This document shows, piece by piece, positions 1,686 through 61,062 of a stretch of 64,000 nt of DNA (position 1 is its first letter; the number at the start of each line of letters is the position of its first letter). The stretch spans positions 372,001 to 436,000 of the forward strand of contig NZ_FZNR01000002.1 in assembly GCF_900188005.1 (NCBI RefSeq), read 5' to 3'. The notes below the pieces were generated by a model. That model was not told the DNA's origin. It did not search any database and worked only from the letters and a program-made list of their open reading frames with translations. Made by a program: the position numbers and the translations under genes. Source of the stretch: Actinoplanes regularis (GTDB lineage: Bacteria > Actinomycetota > Actinomycetes > Mycobacteriales > Micromonosporaceae).

Positions 1686-1784
1686 CCCGCCCCCGTCAGC
1701 GCCGCTGGGCCGCAACCACGCAACACCATCTCCCGCGCCGGGTCCGTCCTCCCGCCCCGCACCCTCCTCCCGACCTTCGCCCCT

Positions 1785-2190
1785 CCCACACCACGACCCC
1801 CTCCCGCACCGCGACCCCCTCCCGGCACCACGACCTCGTTTCGCACCACGACCTCGTTCGCACCACGACCGCCTTTCGCACCGCAACCGCCTTTCACACC
1901 ACGACCCTCTCCCGCACCACGACCCCCTCCCCTCCCCGCACCACGACCTCGTTTCGCGCCGCGACCGCCTTTCGCACCGCGACCTCGTTTCGCACCGCGA
2001 CCGTCTTTCACACCACGGCCTCCTCCCGCACCGCGACCGCCTCCCGCACCACGACCTCGTTTCGCACCGCGACCGCCTTTCACACCACGGCCTCCTCCCG
2101 CACCACGACCTCCTCCCGCACCACGACCTCGTTTCGCACCGCGACCGCCTCCCGCGCCACGACCTCCTCCCGCACTGCGACCTCGACCAG
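1785..2190. repeat. Degenerate 18-bp tandem repeat array downstream of the methyltransferase gene
   Basis: About 22 contiguous units close to CGCACCRCGACCTCSTTT, with variants such as CACACCACGACCGCCTTT and one indel near 1925. There are no spacers between units, so it is not a CRISPR array. An 18-bp period keeps several frames open and produces Arg/His/Asp/Thr-rich shadow reading frames on both strands. None has a ribosome-binding site or recognisable domain, so the stretch is taken as non-coding. The bases between the methyltransferase stop and 1785 are C-rich and look like decayed copies of the same unit. Confidence 0.8.
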
Positions 2191-2321
2191 CAACCCGGAC
2201 CGGACCGCGTCCCAGAACCTCCGCTAGCAAGGGCTGGTTTGCTCCCGGGCGAGTAAGTGGCTGGGGTTGGTCGCCATGCGGTGCGGCCGGTGGGTCGCGG
2301 CCGGCGACGCCGCTCGCGGTC

Positions 2322-2593
2322 GACTGGCGGGCATGGCCGACCGGCGGGCGCGGCCGACCAGCGGGCGCGGCCGACCAGCGGGCGCGGCCGACCAGCGGGC
2401 ACGGCCGACCAGCGGGCGCGGCCGACCAGCGGGCACGGCCGACCAGCGGGCACGGCCGACCAGCGGGCACGGCCGACCAGCGGGCACGGCCGACCAGCGG
2501 GCACGGCCGACCAGCGGGCACGGCCGACCAGCGGGCACGGCCGACCAGCGGGCACGGCCGACCAGCGGGCACGGCCGACCAGCGGGCACGGCC
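2322..2593. repeat. Sixteen head-to-tail copies of a 17-bp unit
   Basis: Exactly 272 bp, made of 16 copies of GACCAGCGGGCACGGCC. The first copies differ by one to three substitutions (CACGGCC versus CGCGGCC). Each junction creates CGGCCG. Because 17 is not a multiple of three, the reading frame rotates with each copy and all six frames stay open, giving long spurious ORFs. The near-identity of copies 7-16 suggests recent expansion by slippage or unequal crossover. An iteron-like protein-binding array is possible, but nothing nearby supports an origin. Confidence 0.93.
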
Positions 2594-2950
2594 GTCCCGA
2601 GATGCGGGCGGATGGTCCTGGCAGGCAGGCCGATGCGGTGCCGTCGGGGCTTTCGGGGTGCGCGGCCCGGCGGTGCATGCGCAAAGTTTCCGCGTTCGCG
2701 GTGGCGGCGGCTCGTGTCGGAAGCTCGGCTGGACGCCATGGTCGTATCGAGGCTGTTGTCACGATGCCGTGGCCCAACTGAGATGGCGCGGTTGGGTCTG
2801 ATGGCTGTATCCCGGCCGGCCGCGAGATCAACTTTCCATGAGCGGCATCGGGCCCCATCCCGATGGAGAAGGCCGCCGACCAGCCACAATCCGCCGAACG
2901 CGTGACGCGCAACTATATGGTTGCTCGTCACTTTGCTGTGCGCTGTTGCC
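2594..2950. other. Intergenic region before padR with no recognisable gene
   Basis: About 360 bases between the 17-bp array and the padR operator. No reading frame here has coding character. The only structure noticed is a short inverted repeat around ATCGGGCCCCATCCCGAT near 2844. The padR promoter should lie toward its right end, where the DNA becomes more AT-rich (AACTATATGGTTGCTC near 2911), but no convincing -35/-10 pair was found. Confidence 0.5.
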
Positions 2951-2971
2951 ATAGTGTGCGACACACACTAT
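2951..2971. promoter_or_regulatory. Candidate PadR operator: perfect 8-bp inverted repeat
   Basis: ATAGTGTG-CGACA-CACACTAT, a perfect dyad with a 5-base spacer, ends 16 bases before the preferred padR start. PadR-family repressors usually bind such AT-containing dyads in their own promoter and release them when the inducer binds. Autoregulation of padR and the membrane gene after it is therefore likely, by inference from position and symmetry. Confidence 0.6.
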
Positions 2972-2987
2972 CGTGAGAGGCATGACA

Positions 2988-58894: not shown

Positions 58895-58981
58895 ATGAAG
58901 AACCTCATCGCACCCCTCGGCTTCACCGTCCTGTCCGCCTGGGTCGTGCTCCTCTTCGTTCTGACCTCGCACAACAGCTAG
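58895..58981 (+). CDS. Single-helix membrane miniprotein (28 aa)
   Basis: ATG 58895 follows a GGAAGG motif. The peptide has a Lys near the start and one hydrophobic helix (LGFTVLSAWVVLLFVLTS) ending HNS. No homologue is recalled with confidence. The composition, ribosome-binding site and single membrane span are those of functional small membrane proteins. It lies between the response regulator and the convergent VWA gene, 14 bases from the latter's stop, and follows the structured leader. Confidence 0.5.
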   Translation: MKNLIAPLGFTVLSAWVVLLFVLTSHNS

Positions 58982-58995
58982 AGCACAGCCGGCGG

Positions 58996-59946
58996 TCAGG
59001 GCAACCGCGAGGTCCACAGCAGACTGGCGGCGGCACCGAGCAGGCCCAGCAGCAGCGCGGTCGCCGCGTACCACTGCGTCACCTCGCGCGGCTCCGTCCG
59101 GTGCCCGATCGAGCTGCCCATGTCCTCGTAGACGTTCTTCAGCTCGCTGACCGAGGCCGCCTCATAGAAGTGGCCTGTCGTCCGGTCCGCCAGCTCCTGC
59201 AGCGAGAGCCGGTCCACCGGCACCCGCTGGAGCTGGCCACGGATGTCGACGACGCCCGTGTCGGTGCCGAACGCGATCGTGCTGACCGGCACGTTCGCTC
59301 CGGACGCCGCGGCCGCCGCGTCCTCGATCGACCGGCCGGACGTCCGGTAGCCGTCGGAGAGCAGCACGATCCGGGCCGGCGGCGCGCCGTCCGCGCCGTC
59401 CGACGGCACCGAGCGGATCGCGTCCAGCGAGGTGAACACGGCCTCACCGGTCGCGGTCGCCTCGGCCAGGGTCAGCGCGTCGATCCCGGCCAGCACCTCG
59501 GCCCGGTCCTTGGTCGGCGCGACCAGCACGTTCGCCGCCTTCGCGAACGACACCAGGCCCAGGTTGTAGGTGGGCGGCAGCTCGTTGACGAACGCCTTCG
59601 CCGCCTCCTGCGCGGCCTCGATCCGGCTCGGCGCCACGTCGTCGGCCTGCATCGACAGCGACACGTCGATCGCCAGCATCACGGTGGCCCGTTCGAGCGG
59701 CTGCTCGGTGTCGACCGAGGGCCGCGCGGTGGAGAACGCCAGCGCCGCCATCATCAGCAGGAACGCGGCCGCCGACACGTGCTTGCGCCAGCCCAGGCCC
59801 CGCGGGGCGAGGGTACGCAACAGGTCGACGTTGGTGAAGCGCATCGCGTACGACCGCTTGTGGAACTGCCGCCACACGTAGGCGCCGGCGACGGCGAGGA
59901 CCGGCAGCAGCGTGAGCAGCCACCACGGAGCCAGGAAGCGGATCAT
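58996..59946 (-). CDS. VWA-domain membrane protein (BatA-like)
   Basis: 316 residues. Two N-terminal membrane helices (LAPWWLLTLLPVLAVAGAYVW and VSAAAFLLMMAALAFSTA) precede a von Willebrand A domain with a complete MIDAS (DVSLSMQADD; later T and D in the GEAVFTS and LSDGYRTS parts). A C-terminal helix (ATALLLGLLGAAASLLW) follows. Partner of MoxR ATPases in the MoxR/DUF58/VWA system, thought to help mature or assemble proteins at the envelope. Its ATG overlaps the DUF58 stop by four bases. Order matches Mycobacterium tuberculosis Rv1479-Rv1481. Confidence 0.9.
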   Translation of the reverse strand: MIRFLAPWWLLTLLPVLAVAGAYVWRQFHKRSYAMRFTNVDLLRTLAPRGLGWRKHVSAAAFLLMMAALAFSTARPSVDTEQPLERATVMLAIDVSLSMQADDVAPSRIEAAQEAAKAFVNELPPTYNLGLVSFAKAANVLVAPTKDRAEVLAGIDALTLAEATATGEAVFTSLDAIRSVPSDGADGAPPARIVLLSDGYRTSGRSIEDAAAAASGANVPVSTIAFGTDTGVVDIRGQLQRVPVDRLSLQELADRTTGHFYEAASVSELKNVYEDMGSSIGHRTEPREVTQWYAATALLLGLLGAAASLLWTSRLP

Positions 59947-60959
59947 CGAGTGGTCCCCCGGGTGCGTGCGTGTCGTTGGGCGGCCACGAAACGGACGATG
60001 TCCAGCAGCCAGTCGGTGTCGGTGCGCAGCCGCAGGTGGGAGGCGCCGGCCGCGCGCAGCGCGCGAGCGATCGTGGCCCGCTGCTCACCGGCGGCGGCCG
60101 CGTAGCGCTCGCGTAGCGCCGGGTCGGCGGTCTGCACCTCGTGCAGCTCACCGGACTCCGGGTCGGTCAGCGTCAGCACGCCGACGTCGGGCAGCTCCAG
60201 CTCGCGCGGGTCGACCACCTCGATGGCCAGCACGTCGTGCCGGACGCCGAGCTTGCGCACCGGCCGCGACCAGTTCTCCGCCGGAGCCAGGAAGTCGGAG
60301 ATGATCACGGCGACCCCGCGCCGCCGGGGCGGCCGGTTCAGCAGGTCGATCAGGGCGCCCAGGTCGGTGCGCCCGGGCCGGATCCTGGTCCGGGCGATCG
60401 CCCGGAGCAGACCCTGCGCCTCCTTCCGGCCCGGCCGGGCCGGCATCCGGACCACCGACGGGCCGGGCGCGTCCGTCCCGGCCGCCGTCGCCGCCCGGCG
60501 CTTGAAGAGACCACGCAGGGAATTGCTCTCCGGTACGGCGGAGCCGGTGCCCACCACCGCCCCGATCCGGTTGCCGCCCCGCGCCGTCAGGTGGGTGACC
60601 GCGGTCGCCGCGGCGATCACCAGATCGCGCTTGAGCCACTTCGCGGTCCCGAAGTCGAGACTGGCCGACAGGTCGATCGCCATCCACGTCTCCAGCTCCC
60701 GGTCGGCGACCGTGCGCCGCACGTGCGGGAGCGTGGTGCGGGCGGTGACCGGCCAGTCCATCCGGCGCACGTCGTCGCCGGGACGGTACTCCCGGGACTC
60801 GCCGGCCTCGGTGCCCGGACCGGGCAGCAGGCCCACGTAGTCGCCCTGGAGCAGGCCGTCCAGTTTCCGGGTGACCAGCAACTGCAGGCGGGCGAGCACG
60901 GCCTCGGCCCGCGCCGCCTCCTCCGGCGGCGCCTGCGCCGTGCCGAGCGGTCGACTCAT
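59943..60959 (-). CDS. DUF58 domain protein
   Basis: 338 residues, soluble. The DUF58 signature is REYRPGDDVRRMDWPVTARTTLPHVRR (about residues 56-82), and the VWA-like part carries TWMAIDLSASLDFGTAKWLKRD and VAVIISDFLAPAENW. It acts with MoxR and the VWA protein; in related systems the DUF58 protein is a binding partner of the ATPase. Its stop overlaps the VWA start. It is separated from moxR by a 93-base gap filled by a tandem duplication. Confidence 0.88.
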   Translation of the reverse strand: MSRPLGTAQAPPEEAARAEAVLARLQLLVTRKLDGLLQGDYVGLLPGPGTEAGESREYRPGDDVRRMDWPVTARTTLPHVRRTVADRELETWMAIDLSASLDFGTAKWLKRDLVIAAATAVTHLTARGGNRIGAVVGTGSAVPESNSLRGLFKRRAATAAGTDAPGPSVVRMPARPGRKEAQGLLRAIARTRIRPGRTDLGALIDLLNRPPRRRGVAVIISDFLAPAENWSRPVRKLGVRHDVLAIEVVDPRELELPDVGVLTLTDPESGELHEVQTADPALRERYAAAAGEQRATIARALRAAGASHLRLRTDTDWLLDIVRFVAAQRHARTRGTTR

Positions 60960-60972
60960 GCGATCACCTCCG

Positions 60973-61062
60973 CCGCACCGAGGTGACCGATTCGCTCGCA
61001 GGCGGGCTCATGCCGGTCCGCACCGAGCCAACCGATTCGCTCGCAAGCTCGCTCATGCCTGG
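60973..61062. repeat. Two-copy 45-bp tandem duplication covering the moxR stop
   Basis: Copies at 60973-61017 and 61018-61062 both read CCGCACCGAG near the start and contain ATTCGCTCGCA then GCTCATGCC. The second copy includes the moxR stop codon and last codons, so the first copy is a duplicated gene 3' end, now in the gap before the DUF58 gene. Confidence 0.83.

What the first reader, a model, noticed from the sequence alone, without database searches (positions are those of the whole stretch)
1686..61062. Tandem repeats recur at the 3' ends of unrelated genes
At least ten arrays with unrelated units (15, 17, 18, 22, 27, 30, 45, 57 and 62 bp) lie at or just after stop codons: methyltransferase, padR, HAAS protein, GGDEF, Nudix, chemoreceptor, kinase, MocR, moxR. 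Several include copies of the gene's own last codons and stop. The two inside coding sequence (padR, kinase) have units divisible by three. This suggests an ongoing process that duplicates gene ends, tolerated only when it keeps the frame.
Basis: seen in the sequence. Interest (0 to 1): 0.75.

Follow-up and report, generated by a model that had tools for sequence, protein, structure and literature searches.

The report
Gene-end repeats hide mobile mini-genes
Most repeats at gene ends in this Actinoplanes-like bacterium are ordinary ones that likely persist only where they do no harm, but one is a pair of shortened copies of a tiny, likely mobile element that sits exactly where one gene stops and the next starts and has relatives in many related genomes.

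Summary
The arrays are real: 13 in the window at TRF score 100 or more, none in 20 random windows. In 2.56 Mb of this genome and relatives, private arrays lie at 1.12 per kb between convergent genes and 0.21 between divergent ones and cross stop codons 43 times, start codons twice. Inside genes, 93 of 93 have periods divisible by three. Relatives carry mostly unrelated units at one gene end compared. This fits minisatellites filtered by selection, not a gene-end duplicating process.

The moxR array differs: two shortened copies of a dispersed element, usually 77 bp, with 137 matches in this genome, placed exactly between moxR's stop and the next start. Full copies hold a 26-codon ORF overlapping both neighbours, a GGAGG and a covarying hairpin over the next start codon. 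At three junctions the nearest relatives have a bare 4-base overlap. Relatives occur across the order; the 5' end is a covarying palindrome. The architecture matches the mycobacterial MIRU, which one paper calls restricted to M. leprae and the M. tuberculosis complex. Not shown: translation, a mobilising enzyme, kinship with the M. tuberculosis MIRU.

The parts
1782..2184 (+). Array, period 72 (36, 18), 5.5 copies, C-rich; starts 96 bp after the stop of an O-methyltransferase gene (684-1685)
   Evidence: TRF; distance; Pfam
2327..2594 (+). Array, period 17, 15.8 copies; 641 bp after the methyltransferase stop, 393 bp before the padR start as called
   Evidence: TRF
3315..3393 (+). Coding array, period 15, 5.3 copies, at the C-terminus of padR (stop 3408-3410)
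   Evidence: TRF; Pfam PadR
4489..4678 (+). Array, period 57, 3.3 copies, 110 bp after the HAAS gene stop
   Evidence: TRF
14618..14862 (+). Array, period 62/115, crosses the GGDEF gene stop by 34 bp; copies hold the last codons and the stop
   Evidence: TRF; sequence; Pfam
15402..15478 (+). Array, period 39, 2 copies after the Nudix stop; the gene end is a diverged further copy (by eye)
   Evidence: TRF; sequence
17295..17393 (+). Array, period 18, 5.5 copies, begins 4 bp before the end of the chemoreceptor gene
   Evidence: TRF
17408..17553 (+). Array, period 77, 1.9 copies, in the same convergent gap (private unit, not the MIRU-like element)
   Evidence: TRF
17570..17909 (-). Array, period 27/108, ends 12 bp from the stop of the response-regulator gene (17923-18594, minus)
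   Evidence: TRF
18637..19052 (-). Coding array, period 30, 13.9 copies, at the C-terminus of a histidine kinase (18591-20543, minus)
   Evidence: TRF; Pfam
44779..44841 (-). Coding array, period 33, 1.9 copies, in a Band_7 gene (44296-45408, minus)
   Evidence: TRF; Pfam
49877..50013 (+). Array, period 22/44, 10 bp after the stop of a MocR-type gene, in a convergent gap
   Evidence: TRF; Pfam
61012..61056 (-). MIRU-like element, shortened unit 1 (45 bp), from the ATGA that holds the moxR stop (61053-61055)
60960..61011 (-). MIRU-like element, shortened unit 2 (52 bp), followed by the ATGA that holds the DUF58 start (60957-60959)
60964..61056 (-). Short ORF of the two units, 30 codons plus TGA, ending 4 bases before the DUF58 ATG
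   Evidence: translation; sequence
61053..62222 (-). moxR gene (AAA_3, bpMoxR), upstream neighbour of the element
   Evidence: Pfam
59943..60959 (-). DUF58 gene, downstream neighbour of the element
   Evidence: Pfam

Best explanation
The arrays at gene ends are two different things: private minisatellites, which likely arise by copying slips anywhere in the chromosome and likely survive only where they spare promoters and reading frames, and, at moxR, two shortened copies of a MIRU-like element that sits exactly where moxR stops and the next gene starts.

Private arrays. Shown: their positions, the frame filter and the change of units between species at one gene end. Inferred: that slippage or unequal recombination makes them, and that selection rather than targeting places them. 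A tandem duplication across a stop codon leaves the protein intact, because the first copy keeps the coding end and the stop.

MIRU-like element. Shown: the 77-bp unit begins with ATGA and is followed by RTGA (R = A or G). The upstream gene ends at the TGA of the first and the downstream gene starts at the second. A 26-codon ORF runs from one to the other, GGAGG precedes the next start, and a covarying hairpin pairs that start codon with a CAT inside the element. Near relatives lack the unit at three of three junctions. Inferred: the element brings the left ATGA and lies just 5' of the old RTGA. Ribosomes finishing the upstream gene would translate the short ORF, open the hairpin and pass to the downstream gene, so the insert would be nearly silent in a coupled operon. 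Its spread would be by transposition with an unknown enzyme acting in trans.
For: PRIVATE ARRAYS. Four sets: own 1.19 Mb; single-contig relatives G023 and G010, 0.4 Mb each; 29 named loci, 0.56 Mb. Of 181 noncoding arrays, 8 not lying between two called genes and 4 MIRU-like ones were left out, and 2 half-coding ones were not classed. The other 169: convergent gaps 86 in 77.0 kb (1.118/kb), same-direction 62 in 175.4 kb (0.353/kb), divergent 21 in 99.7 kb (0.211/kb). Array-bearing gaps: 63 of 315 convergent, 11 of 365 divergent, Fisher p 3.7e-13; each set alone p below 0.017. Coding arrays with period divisible by three: 42/42, 9/9, 19/19, 23/23. Units differ between species at the Nudix end (27 of 28 unit pairs unrelated).

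ELEMENT. 137 matches to its 5' end in the own genome at 3 mismatches or fewer, 0 for the reversed pattern. Of 48 distinct copies read, 35 have the next start codon at exactly 77 bp; all 35 have the ORF open, and the right end is ATGA in 31 and GTGA in 4. Of 17 copies in the 1.19 Mb, 12 come first in their array; in 10 of these the upstream gene's TGA is the element's TGA (my count; for all 48 copies, tandem followers included, 24). Empty sites, a 4-base RTGA overlap without insert: moxR-DUF58 in 9 of 29 congeners, among them G010, G016, G014 and G023; carboxyltransferase subunit pair in G016, G014 and G023 (from the letters); ABC permease-ATPase pair in G014, G015, G223, G019, G002 and G020. 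3' hairpin: 13 double-change cells against 3.3 in shuffles, reached by 0 of 500, slid controls 0 to 2; one full copy folds with z -3.4 as DNA. 5' palindrome: pair 1-22 G-C 49, A-T 59, A-C 2; pair 6-17 Watson-Crick 103, wobble 4, other 3 of 110 loci in 40 genomes; best of 20000 shuffles of pair 6-17 was 94.
Against: In same-direction gaps private arrays are not clearly nearer the stop (36 of 62). Periods of noncoding private arrays are divisible by three more often than 1/3 (73 of 169, p 0.009), which relaxed constraint does not explain. Starts come from my own gene caller, so start overlaps may be under-counted.

For the element: the 5' palindrome scores weakly by energy (-1.5, -4.2 and 0 kcal/mol as RNA for three variants; -1.7, -1.7 and 0 as DNA), so its support is covariation alone. 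Whole 121-nt contexts are mostly no more stable than shuffles: z between -2.6 and 0.4 in six copies, one below -2. The structure counted was predicted from the same alignment. 'Full' copies were chosen by having a start codon at 77 bp, so that feature is partly by construction. In the window the two shortened units lack the full 3' hairpin (z -0.65) and their ORF stops 4 bases before the next ATG. 2 of 12 array-first copies are not at an upstream stop. At the carboxyltransferase pair G014 reads ATGA where G016 and G023 read GTGA, so which RTGA is the old one rests on two relatives. The Y1 transposase family is not shared by element-rich genomes, and no mobiliser was found.
Confidence: 0.8

Rival explanations
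1. A dedicated process duplicates gene ends, for example repair or recombination aimed at termination regions, and frame selection only trims the result.
For: Stop codons are crossed 43 times and start codons twice; 12 against 1 in same-direction gaps. Several arrays start 14 to 54 bp inside the gene end.
Against: Arrays are densest in convergent and rarest in divergent gaps, as relaxed constraint predicts. Arrays also lie within genes. In same-direction gaps there is no clear preference for the stop side (36 of 62). The depth of overlap looks spread over the unit length by eye (not tested).
Confidence: 0.12
2. The arrays are functional transcription terminators, for example C-rich Rho-loading sites expanded by repetition.
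For: Many arrays in the window are C-rich after plus-strand genes, and convergent gaps need two terminators.
Against: C-richness follows the contig strand and not the gene: mean sense C-skew is +0.22 for 22 arrays after plus genes and -0.09 for 22 after minus genes (four MIRU-like arrays included). Array skew follows local intergenic skew (Spearman 0.36, p 0.008, 53 blocks). 252 of 315 convergent gaps have no private array at this threshold.
Confidence: 0.06
3. The arrays are assembly artefacts of a draft genome (76 contigs).
For: The own assembly is a draft and copy numbers could not be checked with reads.
Against: The single-contig relatives G023 and G010 show similar densities and the same bias. 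Copies within arrays are diverged.
Confidence: 0.02
4. The moxR element is a conserved regulatory RNA or leader kept by selection at these junctions and not a mobile element.
For: Two covarying hairpins.
Against: Genes next to copies are unrelated in the cases checked. The nearest relatives have empty overlaps at three of three junctions. Matches range from 0 to 137 within the genus. No Rfam family reaches its cut-off.
Confidence: 0.08

Closest known systems
MIRU, mycobacterial interspersed repetitive unit (Supply et al. 1997, not read; described in passages of PMC12548453, PMC4213456, PMC2453075)
   Same: Units of 77 bp with a shorter variant (53 bp there, 45 and 52 bp here); dispersed and tandem; insertion at start codons with -4 spacing; a short ORF coupled to the next gene; apparently mobile.
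   Different: Here in other families of the order with up to 141 matches in one genome. PMC4213456 says MIRU exist only in M. leprae and the M. tuberculosis complex; PMC12548453 says many mycobacteria. The hairpin over the start codon and the 5' palindrome were found here and were not compared with MIRU.
Minisatellites / VNTR loci of bacteria
   Same: Private units, tandem arrays, change of units between species.
   Different: Strong bias to convergent gaps and across stop codons measured here; copy-number variation between strains not tested.
REP elements mobilised by RAYT (Y1) transposases (description recalled)
   Same: Short, dispersed, hairpin-bearing, many copies, no own transposase.
   Different: Sits at stop/start overlaps with an overlapping ORF. 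Y1_Tnp was not found in the 141-match genome G086 and was found in only 4 of 26 genomes tested.
MITE (description recalled)
   Same: Small non-autonomous dispersed element.
   Different: No terminal inverted repeats seen at the ends of the 77-bp consensus (by eye).

Membership tests
MIRU | Short unit (77 bp, shorter variant) dispersed in many copies and in tandem | tested here: met
   35 of 48 copies 77 bp; 137 matches in the genome, tandem spacing 77; 45 and 52 bp in the window
MIRU | Placed at the stop/start junction of co-directional genes with -4 overlap | tested here: met
   Upstream stop on the element's TGA in 10 of 12 array-first copies; right end RTGA in 35 of 35 copies chosen for a start codon at 77 bp
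MIRU | Short ORF in the direction of the neighbours, overlapping both | tested here: met
   35 of 35 full copies open from RTGA to RTGA; the window pair is an exception at its 3' end
MIRU | Insertion polymorphism, apparent mobility | tested here: met
   Empty 4-base overlaps in nearest relatives at three of three junctions
MIRU | Sequence kinship with the M. tuberculosis or M. leprae MIRU | not tested
   No MIRU letters found in the passages seen or by a letter search.
MIRU | Translational coupling of the short ORF to the next gene | not testable with these tools
   Needs reporters or ribosome profiling
REP/RAYT | Y1 transposase (PF01797) in element-bearing genomes | tested here: not met
   Found in 4 of 26 genomes: own (137 matches to the element), G012, G014 and G220 (0 each); not found in G086 (141), G045 (31), G406 (51)
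MITE | Terminal inverted repeats | tested here: not met
   Ends ATGAGCGAGC and GGAGGTGGCGGC are not inverted repeats (consensus, by eye)
Minisatellite/VNTR (private arrays) | Tandem array of a locus-specific unit | tested here: met
Minisatellite/VNTR (private arrays) | Copy number varies between strains of one species | not testable with these tools
   One genome per species held; no reads
Rho-dependent terminator | C-rich, G-poor on the sense strand after the gene | tested here: not met
   26 of 44 arrays near stops have C above G on the sense strand, 19 of 22 after plus and 7 of 22 after minus genes: the sign follows the contig strand

The most novel reading that the evidence does not exclude
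MIRU is not a mycobacterial oddity but one clade of an order-wide family of drop-in cistrons: 65 to 77-bp mobile elements that insert immediately 5' of RTGA stop/start overlaps. Each brings its own stop, start, 26-codon coupling ORF, ribosome-binding site and start-locking hairpin, so that an insertion into an operon is almost invisible to both genes. Their 5' end is a palindrome in which the first base of RTGA covaries with base 22, which points to a hairpin-reading enzyme, not of the Y1 family, that moves them in trans. Some lineages have undergone bursts to about 140 copies.
Probability: 0.6. Interest if true: 0.75.

Novelty: new variant of a known kind. Interest (0 to 1): 0.55.

Why it matters
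For the private arrays, the data give a clean measure of where tandem repeats can live in a dense bacterial genome. For the moxR element, MIRU loci are widely used tuberculosis typing markers (listings), but as far as I know what moves MIRUs is unknown (recalled, not searched). A genome outside the mycobacteria with about 137 matches, empty sites in relatives, two covarying hairpins and complete related genomes makes the mobility and coupling questions testable without working on a pathogen. It also shows how an insertion can enter the most tightly packed junction in a genome without breaking either gene.

Tried and rejected
Rho-terminator reading of C-rich arrays: rejected because the skew follows the contig strand and not the gene. 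A special overlap depth near 25 bp inside gene ends: it looked clustered, but G023, G010 and the named loci spread it from -54 to -2, so I dropped it. tRNA arrays as a source of the 75 to 78-bp periods: checked, no overlap; three of those arrays turned out to be MIRU-like copies. Y1 transposase as mobiliser: rejected. Rfam: no family at its cut-off in the window and eight loci. Plasmid records: no match for two element sequences; phage records: no match for one of them. Literature: I saw no listing that describes the element outside mycobacteria (searches; full text of open PMC papers only), and none on stop-codon or convergent bias of bacterial minisatellites (five papers listed); this is a limited search.

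Papers: PMC4213456, PMC12548453, PMC2453075, PMC2413405, PMC3364876, PMC10117815, PMC3423362: passages only. PMC4633059: a term search without hits. Supply 1997: only its entry in a reference list. Others: search listings.

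
Full report
CHECK OF THE OBSERVATION. TRF finds 13 arrays (period 10 or more, score 100 or more) in the window and none in 20 first-order Markov windows of the same composition. The host is a 10.03-Mb draft genome in 76 contigs; the window is C67:372001-436000. The best named relatives of the Nudix gene are Actinoplanes species (the own record may be left out there), so I call the host Actinoplanes-like. Several arrays are not at gene ends as claimed: the 17-bp one starts 641 bp, the 72-bp one 96 bp and the 57-bp one 110 bp after a stop. GGDEF and Nudix ends do contain copies of their own last codons and stop.

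GENOME-WIDE TEST. I read contig C67 whole and 220 kb of C39 (1.19 Mb), 0.4 Mb each of the single-contig relatives G023 and G010, and 29 named loci (0.56 Mb), with a simple gene caller of my own. Coding arrays have periods divisible by three in 93 of 93 cases. Of 181 noncoding arrays, 8 that do not lie between two called genes and 4 MIRU-like ones were left out; 2 half-coding arrays were not classed. The other 169 number 86 in convergent, 62 in same-direction and 21 in divergent gaps, or 1.118, 0.353 and 0.211 per kb. 63 of 315 convergent and 11 of 365 divergent gaps bear one (Fisher p 3.7e-13). They cross a stop 43 times and a start twice. In same-direction gaps alone it is 12 against 1 of 62, but 36 of 62 lie nearer the stop, which is not different from half.

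TURNOVER. Around the Nudix gene, 7 of 19 relatives have an array (score 80 or more) within 150 bp of its stop. Of the 28 unit pairs among those seven and the own one, only A. cyaneus and A. palleronii share a unit (one further 19-bp array in L126 was not compared). The histidine kinase carries coding arrays in 7 of 17 relatives with that gene, at periods 36, 48, 45/36, 30, 45, 54 and 18, all divisible by three; six lie towards the C-terminus as in the window, the one in L121 towards the N-terminus (read by eye). So arrays are born and lost repeatedly at sites that tolerate them.

WHAT MAKES THEM. Array base skew follows local intergenic skew (Spearman 0.36, p 0.008; signs agree in 39 of 53 blocks), not gene direction. 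A plain first-half against second-half test on the two complete relatives was not significant (p 0.076 and 0.48). A replication-linked origin is therefore only an inference. The Rho-terminator reading fails on the data. An excess of noncoding periods divisible by three (73 of 169, p 0.009) remains unexplained.

THE moxR ARRAY IS SOMETHING ELSE. Its unit shares TGAGCGAGCTTGCGAGCGAATC with arrays at other, unrelated genes. The pattern occurs 137 times in the own genome at up to 3 mismatches, with 0 for the reversed control. Of 48 distinct copies read, 35 have a start codon at exactly 77 bp. Each of these runs from ATGA to the next RTGA and holds an open frame of 26 codons (typically MSELASESVGSVVSSCRRRSAAEVAA) whose TGA is that of the right-hand RTGA. 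Because 77 is 2 modulo 3, both neighbours overlap it by four bases. In the window the two units are shortened to 45 and 52 bp, read as one 30-codon frame, and that frame stops 4 bases before the DUF58 start.

EMPTY SITES. Between moxR stop and DUF58 start the own genome has 93 bases. Of 29 congeners 9 have a bare -4 overlap there: G010, G016, G014, G023 (GTGA), G019, G724, G021, G723 and G007. Others have different gaps or starts that my alignment did not fix, and I see the element in none of the printed junctions. At the carboxyltransferase pair G016 and G023 read GTGA and G014 ATGA, with an in-frame start there; the printed offset of -1 comes from one extra residue. More distant ones show other short overlaps. 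At the ABC pair six near relatives have RTGA with offset -4; distant ones have other spacings. At the carboxyltransferase pair the own junction reads ATGA...GTGA while two of the three nearest relatives read GTGA. This suggests that the element lies just 5' of the old RTGA and brings its own.

STRUCTURE. The 3' end folds into a hairpin in which the next gene's start codon pairs with CAT. On 29 copies (six tandem neighbours of the 35 left out) 98.7% of cells pair and 13 cells changed on both sides, against 3.3 in shuffles and 0 to 2 when slid; the structure was predicted from the same alignment. The 5' end is a palindrome with GA/AG steps. In an exact pattern that leaves positions 6 and 17 free and allows A/G at 1 and C/T at 22, 110 distinct loci from 40 genomes give pair 1-22 as G-C 49, A-T 59, A-C 2, and pair 6-17 as C-G 91, T-A 10, G-C 2, T-G 4, others 3. 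The list showed only the first places of rich genomes. Energy models give this palindrome little stability, and whole contexts fold no better than shuffles by two standard deviations in five of six copies.

SPREAD. In 200 genomes of the family 63 have a match (3 mismatches). Among 35 congeners other than the own genome 15 have none and the highest has 23; G086 in another genus has 141 (my count). In 397 genomes of the order 132 match at 3 mismatches and 40 match the exact relaxed pattern. G425, in another family, has seven copies at 77-bp spacing. Model R1 finds relatives, some at ATGA and 65 bp apart (as in G560 and G426), in 23 of 198 genomes of a genus that is probably Mycobacterium (sequences of 12 loci, some only fragments). 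Reversed-pattern controls are near zero but not always zero, so single weak matches should not be trusted.

KNOWN OR NEW. Papers describe MIRU as 77-bp and 53-bp units (PMC4213456, PMC2453075). They are said to insert at start codons with a -4 coupled ORF (PMC12548453) and, in one text, to exist only in M. leprae and the M. tuberculosis complex (PMC4213456). The present element matches this architecture in the features that I could test. I could not compare letters with the M. tuberculosis MIRU, so common descent is likely but not shown. The Y1 transposase family does not explain mobility.

LIMITS. One genome per species, no reads, no expression data. Gene starts come from my own caller. Host genus and the Mycobacterium label are inferred from kinship codes, sizes and named relatives.

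Noticed in passing
own genome copies in L083, L086, L094, L097 and C67 about 150564 and 304778: Shortened MIRU-like copies are called as part of the downstream gene, giving proteins that would begin MSELASES or similar; the element can turn into an N-terminal tag.
   Followed up: no
50018-50109: Long inverted repeat (arms about 25 bp plus an outer CATTGCGCCC/GGGCGCAATG pair) directly after the MocR array between convergent genes; looks like a two-way terminator (by eye).
   Followed up: no
own 1.19 Mb plus relatives: Noncoding private arrays have periods divisible by three in 73 of 169 cases, more than one third (p 0.009); unexplained.
   Followed up: partly
18637-19052 and kinase orthologues in L112, L114, L119, L122, L124, L142 (L121 near the N-terminus): The C-terminal part of this histidine kinase is a recurrent site of in-frame repeat arrays.
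   Followed up: partly
L112:10514-10661 and L115:10515-10691: A. cyaneus and A. palleronii share a related 62-bp unit after the Nudix gene, so some arrays outlive speciation.
   Followed up: yes
3407-3410: padR and the HAAS gene themselves meet in a -4 ATGA overlap, the kind of site that the MIRU-like element uses.
   Followed up: no
G000:C33:114512-114877 and C38:358580-358834: The own genome has two Y1 transposase matches; three congeners without element matches also have some.
   Followed up: partly
L195, L204 (another family of the order): Five head-to-tail copies at 74-bp spacing in front of a gene.
   Followed up: no
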